A stretch of 64,000 nucleotides of DNA from Brachionus koreanus (taxonomy: Eukaryota > Rotifera > Eurotatoria > Ploima > Brachionidae), in contig PJRA01000313.1 in assembly GCA_016987375.1 (NCBI GenBank), positions 2,526,246 through 2,590,245 on the forward strand. Direction: 5' to 3'. The notes below the pieces were generated by a model. The model worked only from the letters and a program-made list of their open reading frames with translations, did not search any database and was not told where the DNA came from. Position numbers and translations under genes: made by a program. Shown here one piece after another: positions 21,598-51,539 of the stretch. How positions within the stretch are numbered: the stretch's first letter is position 1; the number at the start of each line of letters is the position of its first letter.

Positions 21598-24357
<2,760 letters not shown>

Positions 24358-28255: not shown

Positions 28256-31200
28256 CTAAAATCTAATTATTTTTTTATTTTTTTTCGAAACCACCCTCGT
28301 TTCGGGGTCAATTTGTTTCGATGCAAAATTTAAAAATATCTGCTCCAATTTGGTTTGAGTAACGATATAGTATTCAATTGAAAATTGTGTCTTAATCTCT
28401 TCTATTAGTGAAAATACTTTGGACAAAATAGAAGTTGAATTGTCATTTATGTGAATATTAACAAAACCATCACGATTCTCTTTTACATAACTATTTTTGA
28501 TTTTGTCTAATATAAATTCAATGAATTGATTCACTTTTTGATTTTTGTCAATTGATTCATCATTTTTTTCAATTAATATTTGATTGCCATCAACTATGGC
28601 TGTTCTATCTTGGTGTGCATTCATTTCATTGGAATTATTGTTCAAACATATTTTTACCATCAAAGTATATCCTTCTCCGTATTTACTCTTTAAATGCTGT
28701 AGACTGCCAATACACTTAAATTCACCATTGACCATAATACCAATATTTGAACACAAAACTTCGGTTTCATCCATACTAAAATTAAATTAAATTTTTAGAT
28801 AATTATAGCTTTTTTTTTTCCTATTAATAAAAGTAATTAAAATCACTAAATAAAAATAATAAGAAAAAAAATTGCTCATTTTATCAATTATTTACCTATG
28901 CGTAGTTAAAATCAATGATTTTCCTTTATTTTTTATTTTGATCAAACAGTTCCATAAAGTTCTTCTTGTAATCGGATCCATTCCACTAGAAAAAAAAGAA
29001 AAATTTACGTTTATTTGTGTTTGTTTTTTCCAAAAATAAAATTATTTACGATGTCGGTTCATCAAGCAAAACAACAAGAGGACTTCCTATGAGAGCTATT
29101 GCTACAGACAATTTACGCTTGTTTCCACCACTAAGTGTATAGCACATTTTCTCAATATGATCATCTAAATCAAGAAGATTTATCAACGATAGACATGTGT
29201 TTTTGATAATGTTTGGTTTGAGTCCTCTCAATCTGGCATACATAGTCATCGTTTCCATGACAGTCATTTGATCAATTAAAGGATCAAACTGGGGACAATA
29301 GCCAAGTTTTTTTTGATATTTTTTCAAGTTATTTTTAATGCTTATTCGATTGATTGAAGCATCGCCTTTGGTCAAATATTCATCACCGGTTAGCATTTTA
29401 AAACTTGTTGATTTTCCAGCACCGTTTACACCTAGTAAACCAAAGCACTCGGATGATTTAAGCGTAAAACTAATACCTTTAACTGCCATGAAATTCGAGT
29501 AATATTTTGTGATACCATCGACTATAAAAAATTCTTCATTCTTATAAGATTTGTTTCTAATTCGATTCTCTTCATTAACTACATCATTGTCTTTTTTAAT
29601 ATCCCCATATTCTCGTTCTAAATCAATTTGGCCATCATTATTCTTATTTGCTGAAGAAGATGGTCTTAACTTATAAAATATTTTTTTTAATATTCCAGCC
29701 TCATAGAGCAATATTATTCCAAATTGAACTAAAAATTGGATAATCATGAAAACAAGAAATCTCAAAAGACCAGGTTTCTCCCAGCTAAAATAGTTTTCAT
29801 TCCAATAAAAACAATCAAAATTTCCACAAGGTTTTTCTAGGCCTTCATTTATATATCGGCAACACGGATTCGGGAAAAGTTTGCATAAAGCTACTGCATT
29901 TTTTCCCGCGCAATACTCAATTCGATTATAATTTTCATACAAATCTACTATTCCTTGACTAATTATTTTTTAATAAAATTATTGTTATAAATATTAATCA
30001 ATTTTTGCTTACCCAAATGCGTAGTTTGGAAATATAATTAGAAACACCCATTCTAATGTTCTGGCTACATCAGACAAATCTAAAATTGGAGAACTTAATA
30101 TGTTCACAGCTGTTAGTGTTACTTGACCTTGTTGAATAAAAAACAAAATTTAAATTAAAACTCTAAAATTGAAAATTTAATTTTTGTCAATTACTAGATA
30201 ATATGTTCCATGATGTAATGATGGCAAAGCCTGTGGCCGAAATATTGAACAGATAAGAGAAAAGATAAGTTTGTGGCAAATGAGCTAAGCCATTTAAAAT
30301 AAGAAGAAGAAAAAAATACAGCCACTTATCGCCACTGACAAACTGTTCAATTTCAAAAATCTGAAAAGAATGAGATTTAAAAAGTGAAAAAATTTTTGTT
30401 TTCAAAATTTTTACTTTTAAAATGACCATTACAATTGCACACGGGATAATATAATTAAACATGTCCCATAATAATGAACTAGTCCAGTAAATATTTGAAT
30501 TACAACCGCTCATATATTGAATATGCTTTGCATTAGATGTTTTTTCTTTAATTAGAATAATAGCAAAACTGGCAATTAAAAACGAAAAGCCAAATGTCAA
30601 ACCAGATGCGACATTAAAACCAGCAGTTTCTCTTGTTAATGCGTCGTTTAACTCTTCGGTAGTATTTCGCGGCAAAGGATGATTAACAACAGTTATCGTA
30701 GCATCATTCTTATCAGAGTAAACTTTTAGCAAAGCATTTGTTATTTGATTCAAAATCAATGGTGGTGCATGGTATCCTTGATTATTAAAGTGACCTATTA
30801 TTGAATTGTTTTCATTAAAAGATGCTGCCAAAACTGTTCTATCAATCAAGTAATACCCGTTGATTAAGCCCAAGCAAATTAAAAAGTCATCGATATTTTG
30901 TGTTTCTGATTTACACTTGTCGAAATAAGAATTTTCTAGGATACTGACAACTTCGGTATTTTTAAGCTCTTTTAAATTTGATTCAAATACTTGAGCAATA
31001 TTTGTCATAAATTGATCAGATTTTGCGTAAATAAAAGGAGCTATATTTTGCTGGTAACTACCTAGGTTAATTGTAAGAGGGGGTGAATCACTTGGTTTAA
31101 TTGGAGCATATTTTAAATAGATCATATTTATTAGGACACAACCGATTGGAATGAGTAATTGGGTGATGAATAAACTCTTATTTCGAATAGAATGGATAAA

Positions 31201-34200
31201 GCGTTTTACAAATAGAGCATAAAATTGAAGAATGACGAATTTTAAGCCATGTAATTTGTCTTCTTTTTTAGAACCAGCCCACAGTCCAATGTTTTCGAAC
31301 TCACTATTTGTTTCAATGTGAGTGTTTTTTTTATTCATGTCATCATCAAATGCCTTGTTTACTTGCCCATTGCCTTTATTAGTCATTGTATTGTATTCTA
31401 TTTCTCCCTCTTCACCAATTCTAATTAATTAAAAAAAATAATTCATTCATTCATTCGATTTAAAAATAAAATTTACTTTAAAAAAACATCTTCAATTGTT
31501 GTCACACTAATTCCAACATTCATTATATCTAAATTTTCTCTATTTTTATCTATTTCATCCAAAAGACAACTAAATCTAGCTGTTTGTTCGGATGGCAAAA
31601 TAAAGCTTATTTCACTGGTTAAATTAGCATTTAGGCTAGAATTTGGAATAAGTCTTGTGACCAAATTAATGATTTCTTTATCATGATTGACACTATTTTC
31701 AACTGATCTCATTTTGGTCAAAACTAAATTGTAGCCAGAGCCGTATTTTGATTTTAGAAAAAGCGGAGAACCACAACAACGTAGACTGCCTTTTGACATG
31801 ATGGCTATTCGATCGCCAAGAAAATCAGCTTCGTCCATGAAATGAGTTGTTAGTAAAATGGTACATTTTCGTTCTTTTTTAAATTTTTGAAGCAATGTCC
31901 AAGTCGAGTGTCTTGCTTGTGGATCCATGCCTGAGCCTTTTTTAAATTTAATTTTTTTAATTTTTTTTTGGATTAAAATTGAATAAAATTTTTTACTTGG
32001 TTCATCAAGAATAACAATGCTTGAATTGCCAATAAATGCTATTGCTACACATAGTTTTCGTTTCATACCACCTGAGAGTGTTTTTGACAAAGCATGTTTT
32101 TTATCCTTTAAATTTATTAAATCAAGCATGTTGTCTATTTCGCTTTCGTTGAAATTTTCTTTTAATTTAGAAAAAAATTTCAAATGTTCGTAAACAGTCA
32201 AATTGTCAAAGAGAAGATTGTACTGGGGACAAAAACCAATGCATTTTCTAGCTTGTTTAGTTTGCTTCACAACATCAATATCATTGACAAGGATTCTGCC
32301 ACTTGTTGGCTCTGTTAGACCAGTAATCATCGAAATAGTCGTGCTCTTACCAGCTCCATTGTGACCAAGCAAAACTGATATTTGGCCTTCGTAAATATTC
32401 AATGATAAATCTCCCACGGCTTGCTTTATCATGCCAAGTTGTTTAAACTTTTTTGTTATTCTTTCTATTTTGATTCCTATTTTTTTATTCGAATAGACTG
32501 ATTCATTTTCAAATGATCCATTATCAATAGAATTCTCATATGTTCCATTAATATTTAGATTATTATCCATTTTTTTTAAATTTATTTCAGAATTAACTCG
32601 TTTTTTTTTTTTTTTTAAAATAAAATGAAAAGGAAATAACCAATCTTTTGCTATTCCTTTATCTCCAGGAAGTACGTTATCAAAATAGTAAAGAAGTATC
32701 AAATTTATTAAGTTATTTGCCAACATTATAATCATAACATTCAGTAGTGAAAAAGAATCATCAACACTCAACCCTTCACTCCAGTTACTAAAGTCTATGC
32801 CTGTTCCTTTACCTTCAAACATTCCAATCAATTGAATTCCTAAGCTCATGGCCAAATTATTCACAAAACAAGAGATTACTTTTAGTCCAAGGGTCAATTT
32901 TTCATAGCGTAGAGAAATAAAAATGTATGGTAAGTAAGAAAAGAACCAAATGACTCCAGCTCCGGCAGCTCCACTATTTGCCTTCTTGAAAAATGTAGAA
33001 CACACAAACGTCAATGTGACAGAACTCGAAGCGTACAAAATTAAAAATAAAAAGAATAAAAACGCATCAGTTTTATTTATAATTGATGCTTTAGCTCCAC
33101 TTTCTACAGTTAATGGAGTTTTGAAACTAATCACTATGAAAATAATTGCTGGTAATAAGATTCCCATAGTCTTAATGTACCAAGAAAGCCAGTATATCCA
33201 TGGTTTCATGCCCATTAATTTCATTCCTTCTTTGATGCCTGATTCTTTTTCAGCAACAATAGCTTTGGCAGTCAATACAACAGTGAATATAAAACTTAAC
33301 ATGATAATAAAGGGAAACAATGCTTGAATAATGGCCACAAAAGGATCATTGTTATATGGCGGATATGGGAATCGTTTTAAATCTAAATTAATTGATTTGG
33401 CTGAATTATTAAATCGATTCAAAAAATTAAAATCAATTGATTTTTGCAACGATAAAAATCCTTCGGCAAAATATCCTTTAAAAAAGATTAAAGTCAAAAC
33501 TACTAATTTATTTTTTAACCAATTTACCTGGTGTTCCTCCGTTAATTTGTTCTTTATTTCTTGGGCCTAGAACAGGAAAAAATGGATAAAGTGCATTGGT
33601 CTTCCAATCTCTTTCTCTGCTAAACTCGCTGAAATAAAATAAAAAATTATTTCAAATAAATTTTTTATTTTTTAGCCTAAATTTTACCTCAATCCAGGAT
33701 TGTTTCGTGGCGAATGACTTAAGCGAATTTTGTAGACAAGATTAGTTTCAGCCTGATTTGTAAATGAAATGACACCCAAGCATCTCTTTGAAGAATAAAT
33801 ACTTGTTGCAAAATCAACAGCCTCTTCTTCTGATCCAAATCCTTTTATGATTAAGATTACTAATGTTTTAAAAAAAATAAGTTTTTTTCTTTAACCTTCT
33901 GGTATTAAATTCAAATCAGATCCAACTGATTTCATTAGATCAGATATTAATTGTGAATTATTCGGTTGATATGCAATTGAGTAATTTGTGAAAACAAATG
34001 GCAATTGTTTGATTTTGAAAGATGGAAATAAAATAGAATCTTCATAATAAGTTGAATCAACAATTGATCTAATTGGGAGTAATATAAAAGCGAAAATTGC
34101 CGGTACTAAAATTTCCAATGCAAGTCCAATTGGTGATTTTAGTTGCAAACGAAAATTTTTCCATAATAAAAGAAACAACTGCTTTATGTTTGTTTTCCAT

Positions 34201-34214
34201 TCATTTTTTGTCAT
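28256..34214 (-). CDS. ABCA-type lipid transporter, complete copy (11 exons)
   Basis: A full ABCA half-plus-half transporter moving lipids across membranes, closest in layout to ABCA3. Minus-strand exons: 34214-33896, 33859-33688, 33628-33528, 33475-31997, 31936-31477, 31420-30415, 30360-30195, 30127-30013, 29958-29050, 28985-28896 and 28775-28256; phases sum to 1778 residues. Order: first TM helix (LEILVPAIFAFILLPIR) and lumenal loop, TMD1, NBD1 with Walker A GHNGAGKST, signature LSGGMKRKL and Walker B IVILDEP, the ABCA motif VGISVTTIEDVFLK, TMD2, and NBD2 with GVNGAGKST, LSGGNKRKL and VVLLDEP. The introns at 31937-31996 (60 nt) and 30361-30414 (54 nt) are stop-free multiples of three; retaining the first would add a Lys-rich insert after NBD1 Walker B. 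Two other family members lie downstream on the plus coordinate. Confidence 0.93.
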
Positions 34215-37200
34215 TTTTTATTATCTTAACAAAACTTTTAATTTAAAGGATTGAAAAATATTTCTTTAAATAAGAAATTTTCGCTAATTACATAAGTTTC
34301 AAGATATAAGTAGACGCTCAGGTGCATGAGACATAAATTTTAAAGTATAAGTTAAAAGTATTAATTTAATCATTAAAAATGTGCTCTATTGAGAAATAAT
34401 TTATCTAAAAAAATTTTAATCTAATAAAAGTGATAAGAAAACTTTTTATTTTACTATTTCTAAATAAAAATTTAAAAGATTAAGTCCTATCTTGACATTT
34501 TAACAGAAAAAATACATTTTAATTTAAATTATAATGTTGCAGTAAAAATTTAAAAGCTTTTAGATTATGTTTTTCTCATTGATTATTGCTATTTTCATTT
34601 TACTATTTTATCCCTAATTCAAATTTTTTTGTTCAAATCTAATCAAATTAATTCACGTTTTAATCAAAGATTTAAAAATATATATTTGTTTCACTTTAAT
34701 CAATACTAAATCGATAAAAGAAACAAATTAAAGCTAAATAAATTTCATTTCGCTGATTATGATTTTTTAATAATTTATCTAAATTTTAACTTTGAATTTT
34801 TAAACAAGATGCATATTTTTTTAAAGTACTTCAATAAAACGCTGTTTACTCAAAGTTTATCATTACAAATGTTAAATATTTTTCTTAATAAAAATTGAAA
34901 CCTTTTACAAATATAAAAAGTATACGAGGTCATTAAAAACTATTGTTTTTGACAAACAAACAAGGTGCTTTAAAAGTACTTTTAAATTTTCAGATAAGTT
35001 TGTAAAAAAACAAAAGTAAATAAATACCTCAATTATTTCTTAATCGATAAAAAAATAATCCAAGCCCATTCTCTTGGTTTTAATATCCTTTTCTATATCT
35101 ATTTTAAAATAATTCAGATATGAAAACTTTATTTAAAAGTAAGCTTATGATCAATATGTTAATAACAGTGAATTATTAGTAAAAAAATATTTAAAATAAA
35201 TTTACAAATTTAAACATAATTAAAAAAAAAAGTTTAAAATCAATTAAAACGTTTAATTATCTAGTTCTTATGATCATTGTCGTAATATTTTTCGATTTAT
35301 GTAGAAAAAATTTCTTTCTCAATATTTAATTAAATATACAATTTAGTGAAATTTAAATTAAATAAAAAGATTAACTTAAATATTTAGCAACAAATATTTT
35401 TAAATGTCAAAAACCCTTTGATGAATTTTTTTTCGTATAGAGATATGAATGGAGAAAATTTTGTAGATGTCAAAAATTGTAATAAAAATGTTTATTTAAA
35501 AAACAAAATGATTTACTTAATCTTTTTATTAGAGAAATTTGCATGTTAAAAATAGCGGTCATTATTTGCAAAATGTGTGTGTCACATCAACCTAGATTAT
35601 TTTATTGTACTTTAAAGTGAGCTAGAGTAAATCAATTGTTCTCTTAAATAGATTTCGGAATAATTTTTTTGTATAAATATCAGTTATATTAAAAAATGGT
35701 CAAAATAATAAAATAAAAAAATCTTATAAGCTTTTAGACAATATTTTCAAAATATTTGTTTTTTTGAGTTCAGTTAAATCACTGACTGTGAGTTTTTTTT
35801 TAAAAAGGAGAAATAAATAATTTGAAAAGTAGCATAACTAGTTTTTAAACAGTGGGTATAAATTAATTTTTTACATTAATTGAAAACGAAGCTTATTGAT
35901 TAATAATTAATTATCAATGAAAATTAATTTTTTATAATTTGGAAAATTAGTTTAAATTTTTCTTTTTAATTTAATCTTCATTTTTGTTAATTCACGTTTT
36001 TAGAACTTGCAAGGGTTTATGAGGAAGCATTAATAAAATTTAATTAATTTAATTATTTATTTATTCATCTGTGTCGAGTTAATGCTCCTTCCGAATTAGC
36101 TTTATTTAATATTATTATTAGAAATTGCCAACATTAACGCGATAATTTGTGCTCGCGAGCCAGCATCTATACTAACTAATGCTTAAAACTATTTCTTTTT
36201 TTTTTAAATAATTGCTGTACAATTAAATTTATTTCTCAAATCAATAATTATACTTATATTCAATAAAGCGTTTAAAACTCAACATCTTTTGAAATTTTTA
36301 CAAAATCTTCTTTAATTATCCTAAATCCAAATCAAAAATGATTAATTTATATAAACATAAATTTATTTTATTTTACTTTTTATCTAGGTATATGTTATAT
36401 CAGATAGAAAGTATATCAAGACCTCTTTATACTTTTCTCCACATTTAGTCTGCTAATTATTGTTATTTCTATTAGTATTATTATATACATTTTATTCATA
36501 TTCATTATTTATTTTCAAAATTACTAAAAGCCCTGTTGTTTTTTTTTGGCTAATTTTTTTTTAAAAATATCTTAATCCAGCATTAATTTTACTTAGATTC
36601 CAAGAAAAATACACAATTTTGCCAACAAATATTAATCCATCTAATTTTTTGGAATAATTTTTAAAATTCTGAATGCTTTTAAATTTTCTAAGAAAAAAAA
36701 TTTTTGTTACTATTTGTAGAAGCAAACAATATATTGATAAAAGATGTTCATTCTTTTAGAGTAAGGTTACCATTGTCTCAATTTATTGAACGTCTAAAGA
36801 TTTTCCACTTAAAAGTTAAGTTTGAAAAATTTGTAGGATGAGCCAGATATTTCGGAATTTTGGAAAATAGCTTTTTAATATTTAAACAAAAAATCGAAAA
36901 TCAAATTTGATCAGTATGAAGATACTTATTTTTTAAGCCTAGATCATAAGGTAGACTTTGATTGTTTGAATTTTGATAGTTTTTTTAAGTTCTCAATTTG
37001 TTCGTGAAAAAATTCCCGAAAAATATAATGATAGGGTTATAGGTCCAAAGCCTTAGCCCATTACGAAATAAAAGGTCAAGATTGGCATATAATACAAAAT
37101 ATTCACTAATTTTTGATCTTATTTTTAATTTTTGGTGCTTATTATATTGTTTTTGAAATTTTATTATAAATTTTTATATGTATAAAGAAATTTTTTATAT

Positions 37201-38398
37201 ATATAAAGATTAAGCTCCTTTTCAAATTGCCGGGCATTAAATCCTTAGTACATTTTTTATTAAATTAAAAGATCTGTGTCGATCTAGGGCTCCTTCTGAA
37301 TTCAATACAAATAAATTTAAATATTTTTTGATATAACTAAAGATTAGACATGTTTAAATATTTGATGATTCAGGAAAAAAAAGAAGAAACTGTTAGATGA
37401 GAATTACACAATAGAGTAAAAAATTGGCATACCTTGATTCGAACTCTTTTTATTCTTCTAGCAGTCTGACGACCAATGGAGTAGAATCAACAGTCTTGCC
37501 CTGAAATATCTTTCACTCAACTCAGAAATTGGACTCAAGACTGTAAGTAGTTTAAGTTTATTAACACTAGAAGCAGCAAGCATTTTTTCATGTTTTTTTA
37601 ATTCAAAAATATTTTATAAAAACTATAATAATTTATAAACTAATATCATTTTTTAGAGAAAATTGTATAATCTACATAATTCAAAAAATATATATATTTT
37701 TTTTTAAATCCATTCAAACGATACGAGGATTTAAAAATTTTGTAATGCTTCTAGTGTCAAAGGCCTAGTGATGCATGTTAATGGAAGGAGTATCGTATAT
37801 CACCTTCAAAATAGATCCAACTGCTGACCTCTGAATTACTCATATTTTAAATTTTAGTTTCTGATAATGATTTTGAGCAAGGAAAAGAAAAATCCATTCA
37901 TTGATCCTTTCAAGAATTTGTAGAGATTGCTTAGTATTTTTGGTTTTAGTTCCCATTTTCCATTTAAAACACATTTAATTTAATTAAGTCTTGAATTACA
38001 GGGCTTTTTTAATTCATCCAACATTGGACTAAATGTAAGTAAGTGTAAATTTGACTCTAATGTGATGCTTAAGAATTAATTATTTATTATTATACTTACT
38101 GATCGATAATTAAATTTATTAATAAATTTTTAAAACTATTTTCTATTACTCAATTTATCTTCAAAAAATTTATAACTAATTGCTTTGATAATTCCTAATT
38201 TTATAATTGTATTCCTTGCTACATAAAATACTATTGAAAGCTATCTTGGTACAACTATACAAATAAATAAAAGACAGTCAAAAATTTAAAATTTATATTC
38301 ATAAAAATCTAAATTATTTCGTAAACATGTCCTAAAAAATCATTTGAGAGTTTCAAATTTTCTTTTAAATATTGGTCAACTGACTGGCAAGTTTTTAT
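34215..38398. other. Gene-poor interval with small dispersed repeats
   Basis: No gene supported. CTGTGTCGAGTTAATGCTCC near 36069-36088 and CTGTGTCGATCTAGGGCTCC near 37267-37286, both followed by TTCYGAATT, are copies of one repeat. The first copy is also weakly inverted against GGAAGCATTAA at 36023-36033. A B-box-like AGTTCGAATCA (minus strand, around 37435-37445) hints at a tRNA-derived fragment, but no cloverleaf forms. Confidence 0.45.
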
Positions 38399-40221
38399 CT
38401 ATATAAAATAAAAAATAAATAATAAAAAATAAAAAATTAGTTCAATTACTTCAAATATTAAACTTGAATAATTTATCTTAATACTGTGTTCGATTTTTTG
38501 ATCAGAATCGAAAAGATTTTTGAAATAATCCACTTTGTTTTCCAACATGGTTTTGGACGAATTTTCTAGTTCAATTTTTAGATAATTTAATTTTTTAGCA
38601 AATGCAAAATCGTGCAAGTTCAATTTTTCAATAATTGATGATTCTTCAGAGCGAATAATTATAAAATCCAAATTTTCCAAATTTTGAAAAAAGTTTGTTT
38701 CAAAACCAAAAAAATTATTTATAATTAAAACTTGTAATTTTTTCAACTCTGGTCTTAATCTAAAATTTTCACACTGATTTAACGCTAAAAATTTTAGATT
38801 ACTTAATTTCAATTTTTCAATATTTATCAAACTATCATAACTTCGTAGATTAAGCACCTCTAAACTATTCAAATTGTTTAAAATTGATGCATCATTCACA
38901 TAATTGAAGCTAAAATCCAGAAATTTTAACTTTTTAAGATATTTAAAAACTTCTGCACTCATGTGCTCCAGTTTCATGTTATCTAAATAAAGAACCTCAA
39001 GATTTGAAATAGAATTGAATATTTCCGGGTTCAAAACAACATATCGTTTATTGTAGCTTAGACGTAGTATTTTTAAGCTATCTAGACCATTAAAACAACC
39101 ATTCTCTAAATTTTCTATGCAGTTTGTGCTCAATTTAAGATGTCTTAGATTTTTTAAATGAACAAAATTATTTTGTCTAATTTTCTCTAAAAGATTTGCA
39201 TCCAAATTAAGAAATATTAGATTATCAAGACCATTGAATACTTCAGGCTCCAGATCGATCAGATAACTATCCGTTATTTGAAGCTCTTGGAGTTTATTGA
39301 GTCCATAAAAAGCATTAGGTTCAATTGATTTTGTGCTGCAATGAAATATTGCTAGGAGCTTTAAATTTTCAAGGCAAACAAAATTATGTGATGATAATTT
39401 TTTGATAATACAACAATTGAAGGTTAATCTGGTGATAAATTTAAAATTTTTAAAAAATTCACTCGGAACTTTTTCGAGACACAATGACGTATCACTATTG
39501 CATTCAAGCTCTTGGATTTTTTTAATATTTAAATAATATGGAACGAAATCTAATTGATTTTCATTCAGATCTTGATTTATAAAAATTGTTTCGATTCTTT
39601 TTAGCACTGTTTCAGTTGAATTTGTTAAATCAATAATTGGATGGTCAAACTTATCAATCATTAATTCATGTATTATACCAACTTTAGTAACTAAAAAAAA
39701 TTTTTAAAAAAATATAAATGAAAAAATTATATTATAAACTTTTTTCCAAAGAATCAAATTTTCTATAATCCATTATTTCATACTTTTCACAATTATTTAA
39801 TAGATCTCTTCATAATTCATTTAATAAAAAAAATTAAAGTAAAAAAATTTTTTTACTTTAATTTTTCATAAACATCTATGGAAATCATTTCATTTATTAT
39901 GAGCAAAAGACCGAATTTTGGTTCAGATAAATATCTGTCATTATCATTGATAATAAAATTATAAAATCTATCCTTTTGTGCTTTAAAATTGGCAACTAAT
40001 TTATCAATTTTTTCGAAAAAAAAGCAGTATTTGTAATTCTTATCAATTGAATTTAAATTGTAATTCTGAACTTCTTTGATCTTTTGAATTATATCCTGAT
40101 GATCATGTACTTTCTCATTTGTCTGATTAGTCGAGTTTAAAAAAAAATTTTCGAAAGATACGTCAACATTATTGATCAATTCATCATGATAATTAATTAT
40201 TTTAATTTTAGATTCGAACAT
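38399..40221 (-). CDS. Leucine-rich-repeat protein with C-terminal membrane segment (three exons)
   Basis: Minus-strand exons 40221-39857, 39807-39740 and 39690-38399 join in frame to 574 residues. There is no signal peptide. Residues 1-120 are charged and Asn-rich and unrecognised. A short linker (NNCEKYEIMDYRKFDSLEK) comes from the 68-nt middle exon. Then about a dozen LRRs of roughly 24 residues follow, of the LxxLxLxxNxLxxLxxxxF type (for example LIFLNLDANLLEKI, LRHLKLSTNCIENL, LKILRLSYN). The extreme C-terminus is a hydrophobic span (LIFEVIELIFYFLLFIFYFI) ending at the stop, as in tail-anchored proteins. Function is unknown; LRRs imply protein binding. The gene sits between two ABCA copies with no evident link to them. 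Confidence 0.75.
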
Positions 40222-40616
40222 GATACAAGTAAATCTTAAATATCTATTTTAGTTACTAGGAAACAGAAAATAAAATAGAAAATACTTTAAAAGAATATTT
40301 CTGTTCTCAACTTGGATAAAGCTTTTTGTTTAAAAAAAACGAAAATAACTGACTAAAAAAGTCTAGTTACTTTAAATTGAAAAAATAAAGCTGCAAAATT
40401 TTAATTTTTTGAAATAAATTAGTATAAATTTTTTATTAATATTTTAAAATTGATTATAAATATTTAAATTACGCAATAAAAGTTATTTATAATTAAAATT
40501 TTGATTATAACAATAAAATAAATGAAAATAGTAAAATAAATATTTTTTAATTTTAATTAAATGCTATAAATTCTAAATCTTTAATTGAAATAATCGAAAA
40601 CATTTTAAATGACATA

Positions 40617-43600
40617 CTAACAACAATATGATTTTGACTTGCTAACTAACCGGGTCTCTGGGTCTATCTGCCTCGAAGCAAAATTTAAAAATATCTGCTC
40701 CAATTTGGTTTGAGTAACGATATAGTATTCAATTGAAAATTGTGTCTTAATCTCTTCTATTAGTGAAAATACTTTGGACAAAATAGAAGTTGAATTGTCA
40801 TTTATGTGAATATTAACAAAACCATCACGATTCTCTTTTACATAGCTATTTTTGATTTTGTCTAATATAAATTCAATGAATTGATTCACTTTTTGATTTT
40901 TGTCAATTGATTCATCATTTTTTTCAATTAATATTTGATTGCCATCAACTATGGCTGTTCTATCTTGGTGTGCATTCATTTCATTGGAATTATTGTTCAA
41001 ACATATTTTTACCATCAAAGTATATCCTTCTCCGTATTTACTCTTTAAATGCTGTAGACTGCCAATACACTTAAATTCACCATTGACCATAATACCAATA
41101 TTTGAACACAAAACTTCGGTTTCATCCATACTAAAATTAAATTAAATTTTTAGATAATTATAGCTTTTTTTTTTCCTATTAATAAAAGTAATTAAAATCA
41201 CTAAATAAAAATAATAAGAAAAAAAATTGCTCATTTTATCAATTATTTACCTATGCGTAGTTAAAATCAATGATTTTCCTTTATTTTTTATTTTGATCAA
41301 ACAGTTCCATAAAGTTCTTCTTGTAATCGGATCCATTCCACTAGAAAAAAAAGAAAAATTTACGTTTATTTGTGTTTGTTTTTTCCAAAAATAAAATTAT
41401 TTACGATGTCGGTTCATCAAGCAAAACAACAAGAGGACTTCCTATGAGAGCTATTGCTACAGACAATTTACGCTTGTTTCCACCACTAAGTGTATAGCAC
41501 ATTTTCTCAATATGATCATCTAAATCAAGAAGATTTATCAACGATAGACATGTGTTTTTGATAATGTTTGGTTTGAGTCCTCTCAATCTGGCATACATAG
41601 TCATCGTTTCCATGACAGTCATTTGATCAATTAAAGGATCAAACTGGGGACAATAGCCAAGTTTTTTTTGATATTTTTTCAAGTTATTTTTAATGCTTAT
41701 TCGATTGATTGAAGCATCGCCTTTGGTCAAATATTCATCACCGGTTAGCATTTTAAAACTTGTTGATTTTCCAGCACCGTTTACACCTAGTAAACCAAAG
41801 CACTCGGATGATTTAAGCGTAAAACTAATACCTTTAACTGCCATGAAATTCGAGTAATATTTTGTGATACCATCGACTATAAAAAATTCTTCATTCTTAT
41901 AAGATTTGTTTCTAATTCGATTCTCTTCATTAACTACATCATTGTCTTTTTTAATATCCCCATATTCTCGTTCTAAATCAATTTGGCCATCATTATTCTT
42001 ATTTGCTGAAGAAGATGGTCTTAACTTATAAAATATTTTTTTTAATATTCCAGCCTCATAGAGCAATATTATTCCAAATTGAACTAAAAATTGGATAATC
42101 ATGAAAACAAGAAATCTCAAAAGACCAGGTTTCTCCCAGCTAAAATAGTTTTCATTCCAATAAAAACAATCAAAATTTCCACAAGGTTTTTCTAGGCCTT
42201 CATTTATATATCGGCAACACGGATTCGGGAAAAGTTTGCATAAAGCTACTGCATTTTTTCCCGCGCAATACTCAATTCGATTATAATTTTCATACAAATC
42301 TACTATTCCTTGACTAATTATTTTTTAATAAAATTATTGTTATAAATATTAATCAATTTTTGCTTACCCAAATGCGTAGTTTGGAAATATAATTAGAAAC
42401 ACCCATTCTAATGTTCTGGCTACATCAGACAAATCTAAAATTGGAGAACTTAATATGTTCACAGCTGTTAGTGTTACTTGACCTTGTTGAATAAAAAACA
42501 AAATTTAAATTAAAACTCTAAAATTGAAAATTTAATTTTTGTCAATTACTAGATAATATGTTCCATGATGTAATGATGGCAAAGCCTGTGGCCGAAATAT
42601 TGAACAGATAAGAGAAAAGATAAGTTTGTGGCAAATGAGCTAAGCCATTTAAAATAAGAAGAAGAAAAAAATACAGCCACTTATCGCCACTGACAAACTG
42701 TTCAATTTCAAAAATCTGAAAAGAATGAGATTTAAAAAGTGAAAAAATTTTTGTTTTCAAAATTTTTACTTTTAAAATGACCATTACAATTGCACACGGG
42801 ATAATATAATTAAACATGTCCCATAATAATGAACTAGTCCAGTAAATATTTGAATTACAACCGCTCATATATTGAATATGCTTTGCATTAGATGTTTTTT
42901 CTTTAATTAGAATAATAGCAAAACTGGCAATTAAAAACGAAAAGCCAAATGTCAAACCAGATGCGACATTAAAACCAGCAGTTTCTCTTGTTAATGCGTC
43001 GTTTAACTCTTCGGTAGTATTTCGCGGCAAAGGATGATTAACAACAGTTATCGTAGCATCATTCTTATCAGAGTAAACTTTTAGCAAAGCATTTGTTATT
43101 TGATTCAAAATCAATGGTGGTGCATGGTATCCTTGATTATTAAAGTGACCTATTATTGAATTGTTTTCATTAAAAGATGCTGCCAAAACTGTTCTATCAA
43201 TCAAGTAATACCCGTTGATTAAGCCCAAGCAAATTAAAAAGTCATCGATATTTTGTGTTTCTGATTTACACTTGTCGAAATAAGAATTTTCTAGGATACT
43301 GACAACTTCGGTATTTTTAAGCTCTTTTAAATTTGATTCAAATACTTGAGCAATATTTGTCATAAATTGATCAGATTTTGCGTAAATAAAAGGAGCTATA
43401 TTTTGCTGGTAACTACCTAGGTTAATTGTAAGAGGGGGTGAATCACTTGGTTTAATTGGAGCATATTTTAAATAGATCATATTTATTAGGACACAACCGA
43501 TTGGAATGAGTAATTGGGTGATGAATAAACTCTTATTTCGAATAGAATGGATAAAGCGTTTTACAAATAGAGCATAAAATTGAAGAATGACGAATTTTAA

Positions 43601-43874
43601 GCCATGTAATTTGTCTTCTTTTTTAGAACCAGCCCACAGTCCAATGTTTTCGAACTCACTATTTGTTTCAATGTGAGTGTTTTTTTTATTCATGTCATCA
43701 TCAAATGCCTTGTTTACTTGCCCATTGCCTTTATTAGTCATTGTATTGTATTCTATTTCTCCCTCTTCACCAATTCTAATTAATTAAAAAAAATAATTCA
43801 TTCATTCATTCGATTTAAAAATAAAATTTACTTTAAAAAAACATCTTCAATTGTTGTCACACTAATTCCAACAT
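40617..43874 (-). CDS. ABCA transporter copy 2, C-terminal half; 5' part lost in assembly gap
   Basis: Matches the complete copy at a constant offset of 12355 bases from 43874 (gap edge) down to about 40678, introns included. Exons by analogy: 43874-43832 (VGISVTTIEDVFLK end of NBD1), 43775-42770, 42715-42550, 42482-42368, 42313-41405, 41340-41251 and 41130-40617. The 399-residue and 298-residue stretches read identically to copy 1; single substitutions are seen, such as A/G at 28490/40845. The last about 20 codons differ (SRQIDPETRLVSKSKSYCC against SKQIDPETRVVSKKNKK), and the 3' flanks are unrelated. The differing end argues against a plain assembly duplicate. The upstream half cannot be seen. 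Confidence 0.85.
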
Positions 43875-44699
43875 NNNNNNNNNNNNNNNNNNNNNNNNNN
43901 NNNNNNNNNNNNNNNNNNNNNNNNNNNNNNNNNNNNNNNNNNNNNNNNNNNNNNNNNNNNNNNNNNNNNNNNNNNNNNNNNNNNNNNNNNNNNNNNNNNN
44001 NNNNNNNNNNNNNNNNNNNNNNNNNNNNNNNNNNNNNNNNNNNNNNNNNNNNNNNNNNNNNNNNNNNNNNNNNNNNNNNNNNNNNNNNNNNNNNNNNNNN
44101 NNNNNNNNNNNNNNNNNNNNNNNNNNNNNNNNNNNNNNNNNNNNNNNNNNNNNNNNNNNNNNNNNNNNNNNNNNNNNNNNNNNNNNNNNNNNNNNNNNNN
44201 NNNNNNNNNNNNNNNNNNNNNNNNNNNNNNNNNNNNNNNNNNNNNNNNNNNNNNNNNNNNNNNNNNNNNNNNNNNNNNNNNNNNNNNNNNNNNNNNNNNN
44301 NNNNNNNNNNNNNNNNNNNNNNNNNNNNNNNNNNNNNNNNNNNNNNNNNNNNNNNNNNNNNNNNNNNNNNNNNNNNNNNNNNNNNNNNNNNNNNNNNNNN
44401 NNNNNNNNNNNNNNNNNNNNNNNNNNNNNNNNNNNNNNNNNNNNNNNNNNNNNNNNNNNNNNNNNNNNNNNNNNNNNNNNNNNNNNNNNNNNNNNNNNNN
44501 NNNNNNNNNNNNNNNNNNNNNNNNNNNNNNNNNNNNNNNNNNNNNNNNNNNNNNNNNNNNNNNNNNNNNNNNNNNNNNNNNNNNNNNNNNNNNNNNNNNN
44601 NNNNNNNNNNNNNNNNNNNNNNNNNNNNNNNNNNNNNNNNNNNNNNNNNNNNNNNNNNNNNNNNNNNNNNNNNNNNNNNNNNNNNNNNNNNNNNNNNNN
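43875..44699. other. Assembly gap (825 Ns)
   Basis: An unsequenced run of N. On its left is the end of NBD1 of ABCA copy 2; on its right is the first part of the exon that should carry NBD2 of copy 3. The missing pieces (NBD2 and C-terminus of one gene, promoter and N-terminal half of the other) need several kilobases, so the N length does not reflect real distance, or the join is wrong. Confidence 1.
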
Positions 44700-47600
44700 T
44701 GGTAATTATTGTACAAATCAATCATTCCTTGACTATTTAAGAAAATTTTAGTTTATACGAAATAAAAACATGTTTAAAAAAAAATAAGCTTATTTTTAAA
44801 CTTAAGAATCTTAATTTTTATTTTGTAAAACTTTAAAAATCTTTTAGTAGATTTAATTTTTGATTTAAAATAGAATTTTAAATTTCTCAAATTGTAATTA
44901 ATGTCTGGTTGGTCTGAAAAATCTTATGGAGGCTTTTGACAAAAGAAATTAGAAAATTATTATTTACCCAAAAGTGAAGTTCGGAAAAATAACCAAAAAA
45001 ATCCATTCAAGAAGTCTTGATACATCGAGCAATTCAAGTTGAGGTAGTGTTAAAATTTGAGTAGGAGTTAAAGTAGCTTGGCCTTAGAAAATTTATATTT
45101 AAATATATATATTTTTTATTTTTATGCTAAAATACTTGACATTATATTCCAAACAACTAGGGCTGCAAATCCTGTGGCTGGGACTCTGAACAAATAAGAA
45201 AATAGGTACATTTGTGGGATGTGAGAAAATCCGTACAATAAGAGCAATCCAATTACATACATCCAGCGATTTCCACCTATAAACTGCTCAATTCCAAATA
45301 TCTAAATTATTTTTTAAATTAAAAAAAAAAATTAAATAAAATTATCAAGCATTAAATTTTGGTAAATGAAACAGTTTTTAACGGGAATTATTTACAGCTA
45401 CTTTTTTTAAGGTGTTTTTCTAATTATTTTGTTACAAAGCCCAAAATAAAATGCATTTCTAATCGTAAAATTACTTTTAAGAATAAAGGAACTAATGCAA
45501 TAGAAATTAAATAATTCAATATGTCCCAAACTAGTGCACTACTCCAGAAAACATAAGAATTACAACCACTCAAATACTGAACATGTTTGGCATCATTTGC
45601 TCTTTCTTTGATGAGAAACAAAGCAAAACTAGCTATTAAAAAGGACAATCCAAAAGTTAAACCAGTTGCAATATTGAATCCAGCTACGTCTTTTGATTGC
45701 ATATCGTTTATTTGATCAGTTAAGTTTCTGGGCAATGGGTGATTTATAACTGTAATTTTGCTTGATTCATTCGAATAGAAAGTGAGAAGACTGGATGTTA
45801 TTAAGCTTATTGCTAGAGGTGGTACATGAAATGGTTGATTATTAAAATGACCAATGATTGAAATTTCATCAAATTCGTTCACAGTAAACTCAGTTGCAAC
45901 AATATTTTCATCGACAATGTAGCCTAGACTAAGTCTACCCAAGCATCCAATATAATCATCAATGGTATCACGCTGATATGCACATTCATTAGCAGATGAA
46001 TTATTTTCCAAATAGAATGAAGAAGCTGAATTAAATGTGCTAACGTAATCTTTGTAAATTTCGGCTAATTTTGAGACTGTATCAAAGTTTTTGTCTGATG
46101 AAGAAATGTTTAATTTTATGGGTACGAAATTATGATGATAGCTATTCAGACTTAGTATCAAAGCAGGTGAGTCTTCAGGTTTTATAGGACCATATTTTAG
46201 ATAAAATAAATTGATCAATAGACAAATAACAGGGATCACAATTTGAACTAATATTAGAATCTTGTTGCGGAGTGTATTTATCAAGCGCTTGATAATTAAA
46301 GCATAAAACTGCTGATATACAAGTCTTATGCCTTTAACTAAATCAAAACTTTGTGAACCAGCCCATAGACCGAAATTTTCAAATTCATCATTGTTATTTG
46401 GATTAGCAGAATTTTCTATATCACCATTTAGTGATGGTGTTTTTTGATTATTAACAGATTCATGTTTTTTTAAATCAATTTCGTCTATTTCTTGGATATT
46501 TTCCATTTCACCAATTCTAGTAATTAGAAAAAAAATAAAAATAAATTCAGTCATTCGATTTAAAAATAAAATTTACTTTAAAAAAACATCTTCAATTGTT
46601 GTCACACTAATTCCAACATTCATTATATCTAAATTTTCTCTATTTTTATCTATTTCATCCAAAAGACAACTAAATCTAGCTGTTTGTTCGGATGGCAAAA
46701 TAAAGCTTATTTCACTGGTTAAATTAGCATTTAGGCTAGAATTTGGAATAAGTCGTGTGACCAAATTAATGATTTCTTTATCATGATTGACACTATTTTC
46801 AACTGATCTCATTTTGGTCAAAACTAAATTGTAGCCAGAGCCGTATTTTGATTTTAGAAAAAGCGGAGAACCACAACAACGTAGACTGCCTTTTGACATG
46901 ATGGCTATTCGATCGCCAAGAAAATCAGCTTCGTCCATGAAATGAGTTGTTAGTAAAATGGTACATTTTCGTTCTTTTTTAAATTTTTGAAGCAATGTCC
47001 AAGTCGAGTGTCTTGCTTGTGGATCCATGCCTGAGCCTTTTTTAAATTTAATTTTTTTAATTTTTTTTTGGATTAAAATTGAATAAAATTTTTTACTTGG
47101 TTCATCAAGAATAACAATGCTTGAATTGCCAATAAATGCTATTGCTACACATAGTTTTCGTTTCATACCACCTGAGAGTGTTTTTGACAAAGCATGTTTT
47201 TTATCCTTTAAATTTATTAAATCAAGCATGTTGTCTATTTCGCTTTCGTTGAAATTTTCTTTTAATTTAGAAAAAAATTTCAAATGTTCGTAAACAGTCA
47301 AATTGTCAAAGAGAAGATTGTACTGGGGACAAAAACCAATGCATTTTCTAGCTTGTTTAGTTTGCTTCACAACATCAATATCATTGACAAGGATTCTGCC
47401 ACTTGTTGGCTCTGTTAGACCAGTAATCATCGAAATAGTCGTGCTCTTACCAGCTCCATTGTGACCAAGCAAAACTGATATTTGGCCTTCGTAAATATTC
47501 AATGATAAATCTCCCACGGCTTGCTTTATCATGCCAAGTTGTTTAAACTTTTTTGTTATTCTTTCTATTTTGATTCCTATTTTTTTATTCGAATAGACTG

Positions 47601-49428
47601 ATTCATCTTCAATTAAAACTGACGTAATATTATCATCCCCATTTATTTCATATTTTACATCTCTAATTTTTTCCAAATTTTTGTTTGACTTTGTTTCATC
47701 CAAAAAACTGTGGTATGATTCAGACGAGGAGAATTTTTTCTTGAAAAATGACGATATGCTTTTAAATGGATAATTCCACGGTTTACCAATGCCATGATCA
47801 CCTGGAAATAAATCATCAAAATAATATGTCAAAGCTATATGAACTAAATTGTCAAAAACCAAAACAGCCAAAACTGTTGTCATTGAAAATGTATCATCTA
47901 CACTTAACCCTTCATTCCAATTTGAGAAATTAATACCAGTTCCTTTTGCTTCAAACATTCCAATTAACAAAAGGCCTTCACTCATTGCCAAATTGTTAAC
48001 AAACAAAGCCAATACTTTATCAATTATTGTCATTTTTTCATATCGAAGGGAAATAAAAATGTATGGCAAGTATGAAAAGAACCAAATAATACCGGCTCCG
48101 GCAGCAGCACTGTTAGCTTTTTTGAAAAAAGTCGAAGTCATAAAAGTGAAAGTAATAGAACTTGACGCATACAAAAATAAGAATATTGTTAATAGAAATG
48201 GATCCGTTTTGTCAATAATGGCTGCTTCACCGCCTGATTTTAGACTCAATTTAACTTTAAAGCCAATAATCATGAACAACAGCCCGGGTAATAGTAGTAT
48301 AAAAGTCTTTAGGTACCAACTAAGCCAATATACCCATTTCTTCATTCCCATTAGTTTCATAGCCTCTTTAATTCCAGTCTCTTTTTCATAAACAATGGCT
48401 TTGGCTGTTAATATAACCGTAAATATAAAGCTAAGCATTACTATAAATGGAAACAAAGCTTGTACTACTGCTACAAATTTATCATCATTGTAAGGTGGAT
48501 AAGGATATCGTTTTAACCTAAGCTCATTAGTTTCTATTGATTCATTAAACTGATAGATTAAAGCAAAATCAATGGCTTTTTGTATTGAAATGAATCCTTC
48601 TCTATAGTAGCCTAAATCATTAAATATTTTTAGGTATTTCTGTTATGAAGTTAAATATAAAATTTTTACCTGGATCACCACCTTCTAAATCTTTTTTTTC
48701 TCTAGGACCCAAGATTGGAAAGAGCGAATAAATAAATTGAGTTTTCCAGTCCAAATCTTTTTTGAATAAACTAAAAAAAAAAAAAATTTTTTTCCTTTAA
48801 TTTTTTGTTTAAAATAATTACCCTCCTTGGTTGTATCGAGGAGAATAGCTAAGACGAATTTTGTAGGTAAAGTTTTTCAGGCTATGATCTAAAAACGAAA
48901 TGCCGCCAAGACCATTTTTACTATTGTTCTGATTTGTCAAATAGCCTATCATTTCATCTTCAGTTTTAAAGCCTTCAAATTAATAATGTTTATTTAATAT
49001 TTTTGGAAAAAAAATTATTTAGCTTTTTTACCTTTTATGGTCACGATCAAATCACTCTCAACTTTTTCCATAATTTTTTCAATCAATTCAACATTGTTTG
49101 GGCAGTAACAAATAGTCCACAAGCCTTCGTCCAAATCTCTTTTCCAAATTGATTCAAAATTTTGAGACGAAAACTCTGGTAAAAGATCACTTGGCAATGC
49201 ATCAATCGAAAATGAATCATAAACTGTATTGTTTAAATATTGATCAGATTTAACTATGCGCCGGATCGGCAACAGAATTAGAACAAACAGTGTCGGAACC
49301 AGGATTTCAATTATTGTGCCAACAATCCCTCTTTTTTGCAGTGTGAAATTTTTCCACATCAAAAGACCAATTTGCTTTAGATTACTCTTAAGCTCGGAAG
49401 CATTTTTCTTGAGTCCTGTTTGACTCAT
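44700..49428 (-). CDS. ABCA transporter copy 3, N-terminal part; NBD2 lost in assembly gap
   Basis: Exons: 49428-49032, 48972-48822, 48770-48670, 48611-47097, 47036-46577, 46516-45475, 45301-45136, 45082-44968, and 44732 running into the gap. Exon 7 and 8 lengths (166 and 115 nt) equal those of copy 1, and all intron positions correspond. The N-terminus has KQIGLLMWKNFTLQKRG and LPIRRIV, followed by TMD1, NBD1 (GHNGAGKST, LSGGMKRKL) and most of TMD2. Protein identity to copy 1 is moderate in TMD1 and TMD2, but about 46553-47602 is nearly identical to 31453-32502 at DNA level, including the 60-nt intron; one synonymous difference is seen (31655 against 46755). The gene is probably complete in the animal, truncated here only by the gap. 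Confidence 0.9.
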
Positions 49429-49947
49429 TTTATTCTAATATCTAATTTAAATTTTTTCTTATAGTCAATATTATATTTGAGTTAAATTGAATCTAAAATT
49501 TTAAATACTATTGATTGTTTAATTAAATAATATAAATATATTCATCACATGATTAAGTAAAAATAGCTAAATTATCAAATATATTTATCACATTCTTTCG
49601 ACTAATGTTCATTTATGTAACAAACTTAAATTTTGTTAAGCAAGAGTACGAAATATTGCGGCTGAATCAGACTTTAATTTTAAGAGTTTTCACCATAATG
49701 ATGTAGTCTAAGCGGAATTTTGAAATTAAAGCTTGAAGTCAGAATTTTAATTATAATAAGTAGATGCGAACATAAATGTTAAGTTTTATTTGGGAGCTGA
49801 ATTTACAAAATTTTAAATTTAAATTAAAAAAAATTGAGTTTAAAATACTTTATAAAAGCACATGCTGAATCATTAGTTAAATTAACAGTTAGACAATTTA
49901 TGCTTTAAAACATATTGCTTTAGCTTAGCTTAGCTTAATTGGATAAA
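49429..49947. other. Divergent spacer between ABCA copy 3 and H2B
   Basis: Both genes start here and are transcribed away from each other. A small tandem of TTAGC units (about 49922-49937) lies just before the H2B start. No other feature seen. Confidence 0.45.
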
Positions 49948-50319
49948 ATGGCGCCAACAAAGACTGAAGGTTCTTCCAAAGGTTCCAAAATAAAAACTGA
50001 CACACAGAAAAAAGATAAAAAGAAGAAAAGAAAAGAATCCTACTCTTCGTATATTTTTAAAGTTCTTAAGCAAGTTCATCCTGATACTGGTATATCTAGC
50101 AAAGCCATGAGCATAATGAATTCGTTCGTAAATGACATATTTGAGAGAATAGCCAATGAAGCAGCTAAATTGTCTAATCAAAATGGCCGTAGGACAATTT
50201 CTAGTCGCGAAATTCAAACTGCCGTTAGACTTATTTTACCAGGTGAATTGGCAAAACATGCTGTCAGTGAAGGAACCAAAGCTGTGACCAAATATACAAG
50301 CTCAACTGATAGAAAATAA
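49948..50319 (+). CDS. Histone H2B, solitary and divergent
   Basis: A core histone that pairs with H2A in the nucleosome. ATG 49948 gives 123 residues; the TTG upstream is not a start. The tail is Lys-rich, followed by [60 protein letters not shown] and [13 protein letters not shown], all standard H2B. The L2 loop region reads [12 protein letters not shown] rather than the usual LAHYNKRSTITS, and four residues (TDRK) extend the C-terminus. No histone-type 3' stem-loop is visible; AATAAA-like signals follow instead. No other histone gene is nearby. This suggests a replication-independent, polyadenylated H2B. Confidence 0.93.
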
Positions 50320-50725: not shown

Positions 50726-51539
50726 TTAGTTACGACCACCAAAACCTCCTCTTCCTCCACGACCACCTCTGAAACCACCACCATTTCCGCCTCTAAAACC
50801 ACCACGGAAACCGCCTCCATTGCTTCCACCTCGAAAGCCTCCACCGCCTAAAAAATAAATTTAAAAACTTTCATCTTTGATTCTTTTTGTAAATACCTCC
50901 ACCACCGCGGCCGCCAAAGCTACCACCTCTTCCTCCAAAACCTCCGCCACGACCACCGCCTCGTGGTCCTCCTCGACCGCCTCCTCGGCTTCCACCAGCT
51001 CCTCCACCTCTTTTTTGAACCTTACCACCAGGCTGTGGTAAAAATCGTTGCAAGGGAATCAATTTTGCTGGATCGATAAAAAACTTTGATGCAAATAAAA
51101 TTAAAAAACTTTTTTAAGAAAAAAACTTTTCTAAATTACTTGATCATTTTTTTTAAATGATGCAGCTTTGACATTGTCAGTTAATTTTACGGAAAAATAC
51201 TTTTAATAAATATGTTTTTATTATTTTGTTTTATTTAACTAGGTATTTAAACATTACATAGTCTTTGATAGGTCCAAAAATTTCGTCAACTTTTCCTATC
51301 TGTTGTTTGTTTTCCAAATATATAGGAGCATTAAAAAATGGTACACTATCTTTGTTAGAACTTTTTAGAACAATCATGTCTTCACACGGATGCATCATTT
51401 CTCCTCCAGGTACTACTTGATCTGGTGGTCCCTGGTCTTCATCTCGTCTGCCAAAGCCGCGGCCACCACCGCCTCGGCCGCCTCGGAATCCACCACCTCG
51501 ACCACCGCCTCGACCACCACCTCCTCTAGGAAATCCCAT
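50726..51539 (-). CDS. GAR1: H/ACA ribonucleoprotein subunit GAR1 (four exons)
   Basis: GAR1 is the nucleolar and Cajal-body component of H/ACA snoRNPs that guide pseudouridylation, and of telomerase RNP in vertebrates. Minus-strand exons 51539-51258, 51199-51140, 51083-50897 and 50847-50726 join to 216 residues (human 217). An N-terminal RGG domain is followed by the conserved core: [54 protein letters not shown] (across an intron), ASFKK, and [17 protein letters not shown] long C-terminal RGG/GGF domain closes it. The G-rich domains make the exons stand out in base composition against the AT background. A TATTTTAG acceptor-like site lies upstream of the ATG. Confidence 0.95.

What the first reader, a model, noticed from the sequence alone, without database searches (positions are those of the whole stretch)
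28323..47602. Mosaic identity among three tandem ABCA genes
Copy 1 (28256-34214) is near-identical to copy 2 over 28323-31519 / 40678-43874, introns included. It is also near-identical to copy 3 over about 31453-32502 / 46553-47602, again including an intron. Outside these tracts the paralogs are clearly diverged: copy 1 and 3 TMDs, copy 1 and 2 C-termini and 3' flanks. Sharp borders with silent and intronic identity inside are the signature of recent gene conversion or partial duplication, and the two tracts overlap at 31453-31519. NBD1 homogenisation with free TMD divergence would keep the ATPase constant while substrate-handling parts change.
Basis: partly seen in the sequence, partly recalled or inferred. 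Interest (0 to 1): 0.75.

Follow-up and report, generated by a model that had tools for sequence, protein, structure and literature searches.

The report
Two transporter genes sharing ATPase domains
In a tiny rotifer, two neighbouring lipid-transporter-like genes (probably not three) appear to have kept copying their ATP-burning domains onto each other while the parts that span the membrane drifted far apart, and some relatives of the same genus show the same pattern.

Summary
The identity tracts are real in the assembly. Copies 1 and 2 differ at 1 of 3197 bases, copies 1 and 3 at 1 of 1056. I read the locus (Brachionus koreanus) as two ABCA3-like genes: X1 (34214-28256) and X2 (49428 into the gap, its end at 40617). 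The X1-type TMD2 in "copy 2" is most likely misassembly: X2's own TMD2 lies across the gap, X2's distal exon 9 was not found in the assembly, and copy 2 ends with an X2-like cysteine tail. NBD1 homogenisation is well supported and recurrent. In B. koreanus, B. rotundiformis, B. rubens and (fragment) B. calyciflorus, NBD1 of X1 and X2 groups by species, while X1 TMDs group across species. Species-sorted against paralogue-sorted sites: 11-58 to 0 in NBD1, 0-4 to 27-100 in TMD1. NBD2 does the same in B. rotundiformis and B. rubens. In B. koreanus four-fold sites agree at 116 of 116 in NBD1, 29 of 90 in TMD1. Best reading: repeated gene conversion limited to the ATPase modules.

The parts
28256..34214 (-). 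Gene X1 (copy 1): complete ABCA3-like gene, 11 exons, 1772 aa
   Evidence: 10 of 10 introns GT-AG, one open frame; equals the B. koreanus 'ABCA3 X1' record P0001 once a 20-aa stretch (unspliced intron 4) is left out of P0001
44700..49428 (-). Gene X2 (copy 3), exons 1-8 and the first 33 bases of exon 9, running into the gap
   Evidence: 8 of 8 introns GT-AG, 1326 aa; 82% identical to B. rotundiformis 'ABCA3 X2'
43875..44699 (.). Assembly gap, 825 N, at the upper end of copy 2 and inside exon 9 of X2
40617..43874 (-). Copy 2: 3' half only. Probably the true 3' end of X2 (NBD2 module and tail) plus a falsely placed copy of X1's TMD2
   Evidence: 1 mismatch in 3197 to X1; tail LVSKSKSYCC with an X2-like cysteine end; begins at the gap
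31451..32506 (-). NBD1 conversion tract in X1: last 510 bases of exon 4, intron 4, exon 5 and the first 26 bases of intron 5
   Evidence: 1055 of 1056 bases identical to X2; four-fold sites 116 of 116 same; intron 4 60 of 60
46551..47606 (-). NBD1 conversion tract in X2
   Evidence: same as above
28323..29958 (-). X1 exons 9-11: NBD2 and its regulatory domain, shared with copy 2; how much of this is truly X2 sequence is unresolved upstream of 28490
   Evidence: NBD2 shared between paralogues within B. rotundiformis and B. rubens
40617..40677 (-). C-terminal tail of copy 2, diverged from X1
42314..43874 (-). Stretch of copy 2 identical to X1 from the end of exon 5 through intron 8 (TMD2); probable assembly error
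   Evidence: 0 mismatches to X1; X2's own TMD2 lies at 46516-44968

Best explanation
The locus holds two tandem ABCA3-like genes, X1 and X2, that duplicated before the Brachionus species with both types split. Since then non-allelic gene conversion has repeatedly overwritten the ATPase modules (NBD1 with the segment after it, and NBD2, in some species with its regulatory domain) between the linked genes in each lineage. The membrane and extracellular parts, and the linkers beside the modules, have diverged so far at DNA level (about 60% identity, synonymous sites near random) that they no longer recombine. The likely mechanism is self-reinforcing: purifying selection keeps NBD DNA similar enough for strand invasion, conversion restores near identity, and tracts stop at the diverged linkers. 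Shown: identity of silent and intronic sites in B. koreanus, domain-discordant trees, and site patterns in four species. Inferred: the act of conversion, its direction and its frequency. Also inferred: copy 2 is the 3' end of X2 with X1's TMD2 wrongly carried into it, because X1 and X2 share both NBDs and an assembly graph can pass from X2's tail through the common NBD2 into X1's TMD2 and stall at the common NBD1.
For: NBD1 tract 1055 of 1056 identical. Four-fold sites same: 116 of 116 in NBD1, 29 of 90 in TMD1, 25 of 66 in TMD2; intron 4 60 of 60. NBD1 trees join X1 and X2 within B. koreanus, B. rotundiformis and B. rubens and also B. calyciflorus once its fragment is added (support 95/91), while TMD1 and TMD2 trees keep the X1 rows together (support 93-100). 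AU tests reject X1 as one clade in NBD1 (p 8.7e-89, one set of identical rows left free) and within-species pairing in TMD1 (4 of 4 pairs, p 1.4e-4 or less) and TMD2 (3 of 3 pairs, p 1.1e-31 or less). Site patterns, species-sorted to paralogue-sorted, in NBD1 over the six species pairs: 29:0, 58:0, 18:0, 53:0, 18:0, 11:0; in TMD1: 3:100, 4:40, 4:28, 3:41, 3:30, 0:27; NBD2 in B. rotundiformis/B. rubens 19:0. Block borders lie within about 10 residues of each other in the species compared. An unlinked ABCA paralogue on C1 is only 50-54% identical in NBD1. For two genes: gap at the tract end; cysteine tail; X2 distal exon 9 not found in the assembly; no third 5' half found.
Against: GC is not raised in the NBDs (third positions 26.0% against 25.4%, p 0.80; four-fold sites 25.2% against 21.7%, p 0.31), so a mark often seen after repeated conversion is missing. 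DNA was available for B. koreanus only; the other species rest on protein models, one of which (B. rotundiformis X1) has an internal break just before NBD2 and looks chimeric there. The tail of copy 2 is mixed: its end (CC) and length are X2-like, its first residues (LVSK) are X1-like, and only 2 of 10 (with B. rotundiformis) and 0 of 10 (with B. rubens) compared tail sites are paralogue-sorted. The X2 rows are less firmly held together in TMD1 (an unnamed rotifer protein, P0010, is unplaced). No X2 record of B. koreanus or B. plicatilis and no X1 record of B. angularis was among the best 120 listed. No reads were available, so the misassembly is inferred; the 825-N length does not directly match the expected join.
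Confidence: 0.8

Rival explanations
1. Three real genes: copy 2 is the 3' part of a third ABCA gene that arose by recent partial duplication or a 3.2-kb conversion from X1, with the rest of that gene hidden in the gap.
For: Copy 2 has its own 3' flank and tail, different from X1's; the start of its tail is X1-like; gap lengths in assemblies can be wrong.
Against: The gap (825 N) would have to hold about 1.67 kb of X2's 3' end and about 2.70 kb of a 5' half plus spacer (counted from the models); the tail of copy 2 ends like X2 tails; no third 5' half was found in the assembly; the listings name at most two ABCA3 forms per Brachionus species.
Confidence: 0.12
2. All near-identity is an assembly artefact (collapsed or mis-filled repeats); X1 and X2 NBDs are really diverged.
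For: Gap and exact copies at this locus; an apparently chimeric model in B. rotundiformis.
Against: The same pattern with species-specific residues in four species, with a few differences between paralogues inside NBD1 (3 residues in B. rotundiformis, 2 in B. rubens, 3 in the B. calyciflorus fragment, counted from residue 519); two in-tract mismatches in B. koreanus, both synonymous.
Confidence: 0.05
3. Strong purifying selection alone keeps the NBDs alike.
For: NBDs are the slowest part of the proteins.
Against: Silent sites 116 of 116 and intron 4 60 of 60 identical; NBD1 distances between species are 0.13 (koreanus-rotundiformis X1) and 0.31 (koreanus-rubens X1) changes per site while the paralogues differ by 0-0.02.
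Confidence: 0.01
4. Separate recent duplication in each species, followed by very fast TMD divergence.
For: NBD trees taken alone look like this.
Against: TMD1 and TMD2 trees hold the X1 rows of the sampled species together with bootstrap support 93-100 in the variants tried.
Confidence: 0.01

Closest known systems
Regional gene conversion in clustered protocadherin genes (fugu; PMC1852091, passages read)
   Same: Tandem paralogues with >99% identity in one region (3' part of variable exons) and divergence in another; identity at silent sites argues for conversion
   Different: Adhesion genes in large clusters (at least 77 genes); GC3 is raised there, not here
Concerted evolution of the mate-recognition gene mmr-b in the Brachionus plicatilis complex (PMC3495898, passages read)
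   Same: Same genus; [quoted passage not shown]
   Different: Arrays of near-identical repeats inside a surface glycoprotein gene, not separate domains of a large transporter
ABCA3-type full transporters (solved ABCA3, PDB 7w01/7w02, best matches; that these are the human protein is recalled)
   Same: Nearest solved relatives of X1 by sequence; X1 shows two NBDs, membrane domains of the ABC2_membrane_3 family and an R1 regulatory domain
   Different: Substrate of the rotifer proteins unknown; NBD conversion in vertebrate ABCA3 was not examined here
ABCG2 and ABCG2-like in birds (PMC7362505, passages read)
   Same: ABC transporter paralogues tested for conversion
   Different: No clear evidence of conversion was found there

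Membership tests
ABCA subfamily (ABCA3-like) | Two ABC_tran domains in one chain | tested here: met
   Two stretches of PF00005 in P0001 (X1) and in P0005 (B. rotundiformis X2); the window's X2 shows NBD1 only, its NBD2 lies beyond the gap
ABCA subfamily (ABCA3-like) | ABC2_membrane_3 membrane domains | tested here: met
   PF12698 with two stretches in P0001 and in P0005
ABCA subfamily (ABCA3-like) | C-terminal R1 regulatory domain | tested here: met
   PF23321 in P0001 and P0005
ABCA subfamily (ABCA3-like) | Phospholipid transport | not testable with these tools
   No assay; name by similarity only
Domain-limited gene conversion (concerted evolution) | Paralogues closer than orthologues inside the tract | tested here: met
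   NBD1 trees and site patterns
Domain-limited gene conversion (concerted evolution) | Silent and intronic sites share the identity | tested here: met
   B. koreanus only; no DNA for the other species
Domain-limited gene conversion (concerted evolution) | Orthologues closer than paralogues outside the tract | tested here: met
   TMD1 and TMD2 trees, AU tests
Domain-limited gene conversion (concerted evolution) | Raised GC at silent sites in the tract (common, not required) | tested here: not met
Domain-limited gene conversion (concerted evolution) | Conversion events seen in pedigrees or populations | not testable with these tools
   No reads or population data
False duplication at an assembly gap (copy 2) | Duplicate ends at a gap and repeats sequence with near-zero difference | tested here: met
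False duplication at an assembly gap (copy 2) | Half the expected read depth over each copy | not testable with these tools
   No reads held

The most novel reading that the evidence does not exclude
Brachionus keeps one common pair of ATPase motors for two otherwise distinct ABCA transporters: NBD1 and NBD2 are converted again and again with near-constant borders, and selection favours this because NBD1-NBD2 pairing or regulation must stay matched in both proteins while the membrane parts specialise.
Probability: 0.25. Interest if true: 0.72.

Novelty: new member of a known kind. Interest (0 to 1): 0.55.

Why it matters
It would be a clear natural case in which an ABC transporter's engine and its substrate-handling part follow different genealogies inside one gene, repeatedly within a genus. 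It also warns that trees built from NBD alignments will mistake old paralogues for recent species-specific duplicates, and that assemblies and gene models can break at such loci: here one gene is split by a gap and a probably false third copy appears. Rotifers can be cloned and sequenced cheaply, so conversion rate and direction could be measured.

Tried and rejected
Rejected: three full genes (no third 5' half found, gap too small, X2 segment missing). Rejected: haplotype duplication as the source of copy 2 (1 difference in 3197, yet a different tail and flank; a judgement, since heterozygosity of this strain is unknown). I looked for general false duplication in three other pairs of ABC genes of the same assembly with equal or similar scores: the best blocks are 91.8%, 93.4% and 75.5% identical with indels, so they are not exact copies. 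GC-biased conversion signature: negative.

Literature: of the ten paper searches, seven joined ABC transporter or Brachionus terms with conversion, tandem or genome terms; two of these found nothing and two listed only part of their hits (20 of 24; 15 of 22). I saw titles and starts of abstracts, and passages of PMC3495898, PMC7362505 and (from another search) PMC1852091; none reported NBD-limited conversion in ABC transporters. Passages of PMC11954553 gave nothing on conversion. The library lacks most subscription journals, where papers on Brachionus ABC genes probably are (recalled).

Not done: AU test for NBD2 (the script stopped there because of identical rows); the site patterns that were to follow were run. 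Rows: 14 in the first alignment (three from the window, and P0002-P0012); one search added one B. calyciflorus fragment (P0250). Copy 2 was in the TMD2 and NBD2 trees and the NBD2 tree, and was left out of the trees printed. Ten other partial proteins, mostly from unnamed sources, were compared by BLAST only and not used. B. plicatilis and B. angularis could not be tested as X1/X2 pairs because only one type was found in each.
Full report
What is there. The window lies at G000:C2:2526246-2590245 of an 83.26-Mb assembly. Gene X1 is a complete ABCA3-like gene on the minus strand, 34214-28256, with 11 exons, 10 of 10 introns GT-AG, 1772 aa. It equals the B. koreanus record P0001 exactly, apart from a 20-residue stretch in P0001 that is the unspliced in-frame intron 4, so the species is almost certainly Brachionus koreanus. 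A second gene, X2, starts at 49428 and can be read through eight introns to 44700, where it runs into 825 N. It is 82% identical to B. rotundiformis X2. "Copy 2" (40617-43874) is a 3' half that begins at the other side of the same gap.

The tracts. Copy 1 and copy 2 differ at 1 of 3197 bases (28323-31519), and copy 1 and copy 3 at 1 of 1056 (31451-32506). Both differences are synonymous. In the NBD1 tract 116 of 116 comparable four-fold sites and 60 of 60 bases of intron 4 are the same, against 29 of 90 and 25 of 66 four-fold sites in the first and second membrane halves. Selection on the protein alone cannot do this.

How many genes. Copy 2 stops at the gap, 69 bases after entering the NBD1 stretch that X1 and X2 share. 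Counting from the models, the gap would need about 1.67 kb for the rest of X2 and 2.70 kb for the rest of a third gene, against 825 N. No third 5' half was found in the assembly. A search with the B. rotundiformis X2 segment that should follow the gap found X1-type sequence at 52% twice (in X1 and in copy 2) and the C1 paralogue at 36%, nothing else, so that part of X2 seems to be missing. The tail of copy 2 (LVSKSKSYCC) has a cysteine in its last two residues, as have 4 of 4 complete X2-type proteins (B. rotundiformis, B. rubens, B. calyciflorus, B. angularis) and 0 of 4 X1-type ones (B. koreanus, B. plicatilis, B. rotundiformis, B. rubens); its first residues (LVSK), however, look X1-like. 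The one base by which copy 2 differs from X1 inside the tract (28490) lies near that tail, so the contig is probably X2's own at least that far; the upstream limit of true X2 sequence in it cannot be fixed. I conclude that copy 2 is X2's 3' end with X1's TMD2 carried in by misassembly. This is an inference without reads.

Conversion across the genus. Aligned with X1/X2-type proteins of five other Brachionus species, an unnamed rotifer-like protein and two bdelloid outgroups, X1 and X2 of one species are nearly identical in 40-residue windows from residue ~520 to ~840 (NBD1 and the segment after it): 100% in B. koreanus, 92-100% in B. rotundiformis, 97-100% in B. rubens. They are 38-90% identical before it and 10-67% over the next ~440 residues. 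NBD2 (1441-1640) is 100% in B. rotundiformis and B. rubens. Trees of NBD1 join the paralogues by species, also for a B. calyciflorus X1 fragment, while TMD1 and TMD2 trees hold the X1 rows together. AU tests reject X1 as a clade in NBD1 (p 8.7e-89; one set of identical rows was left free) and reject within-species pairs in TMD1 (4 of 4) and TMD2 (3 of 3). With the mixture model, and with B. rotundiformis X1 or the outgroups and P0010 left out, the result stays. Paralogue distances in NBD1 are 0.000, 0.009, 0.006 and 0.020 changes per site (koreanus, rotundiformis, rubens, calyciflorus) against 1.1-1.9 in TMD1; for X1 of koreanus and rotundiformis the figures are 0.13 and 0.44. By that ratio, my own arithmetic, about 0.55 changes per site would be expected between X1 and X2 of B. 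koreanus in NBD1 without conversion. Site patterns show no paralogue-sorted site in NBD1 in any of six species pairs, with 11-58 species-sorted ones (Fisher p 8.3e-10 or less in each against TMD1; the pairs are not independent).

Controls and results against. The unlinked ABCA gene on C1 is 50-54% identical to X1 in NBD1, so being an ABCA NBD is not enough. GC at third positions and four-fold sites is not significantly raised in the NBDs. B. rotundiformis X1 looks chimeric just before NBD2, so NBD2 there is weaker evidence; its NBD1 lies well away from that break. In B. rubens the NBD2 block ends at about residue 1642, before the regulatory domain, while in B. rotundiformis it runs on almost to the tail. 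The two B. angularis records are both X2-like and mostly 79-100% alike in TMD1 and NBD1 windows, so they say nothing about X1/X2.

Mechanism. The most likely course is non-allelic conversion between two genes in the same orientation about 15 kb apart, limited to stretches still similar enough to pair. The borders fall in the fast, indel-rich linker before NBD1 and, at the other end, in intron 5 (B. koreanus DNA) or right after exon 5 (B. rotundiformis and B. rubens proteins). Whether selection also favours a common ATPase pair is open.

Known or new. Region-limited conversion is known from protocadherins (PMC1852091, passages), and concerted evolution from the mmr-b gene of the same genus (PMC3495898, passages). 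A test on bird ABCG2 genes found no clear evidence of conversion (PMC7362505, passages). My searches (listings only apart from those passages) showed no report of conversion limited to ABC NBDs; the library is partial. I call it a new member of a known kind, of moderate to good interest.

Noticed in passing
31996-31937 (intron 4 of X1), record P0001: The public B. koreanus X1 protein keeps intron 4 (60 nt, no stop in frame) as a 20-residue insert between DEPS and SGMDP of NBD1; annotation error or an intron-retention form. X2 carries the identical intron.
   Followed up: partly
P0003 (B. rotundiformis X1), before NBD2: The model lacks the segment before NBD2 and jumps to X2-type linker sequence; probably a chimera at the same kind of shared-NBD junction.
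   Followed up: partly
L025 (G000:C1:4049000-4058500): A third, unlinked ABCA gene, 50-54% identical in NBD1, not homogenised with X1/X2.
   Followed up: partly
38399-39703 (-) and 39853-40248 (-): A leucine-rich-repeat protein gene and an ORF without Pfam match lie between the 3' end of copy 2 and X1.
   Followed up: no
22936-24357, 25569-25880, 26511-27587, 49939-50319, 51231-51584: Neighbours: SIS-domain protein (GFAT-like), MoaE, rhodopsin-type receptor, core histone (H2B-like), Gar1 (GFAT and H2B by recall).
   Followed up: no
L028/L029 and L026/L027: Other ABC genes occur as pairs on different contigs with 92-93% identity in the best block and many indels; recent dispersed paralogues or divergent haplotypes.
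   Followed up: no
2478-2534 / 3063-3122: An inverted repeat pair of about 60 bases, 92% identical.
   Followed up: no
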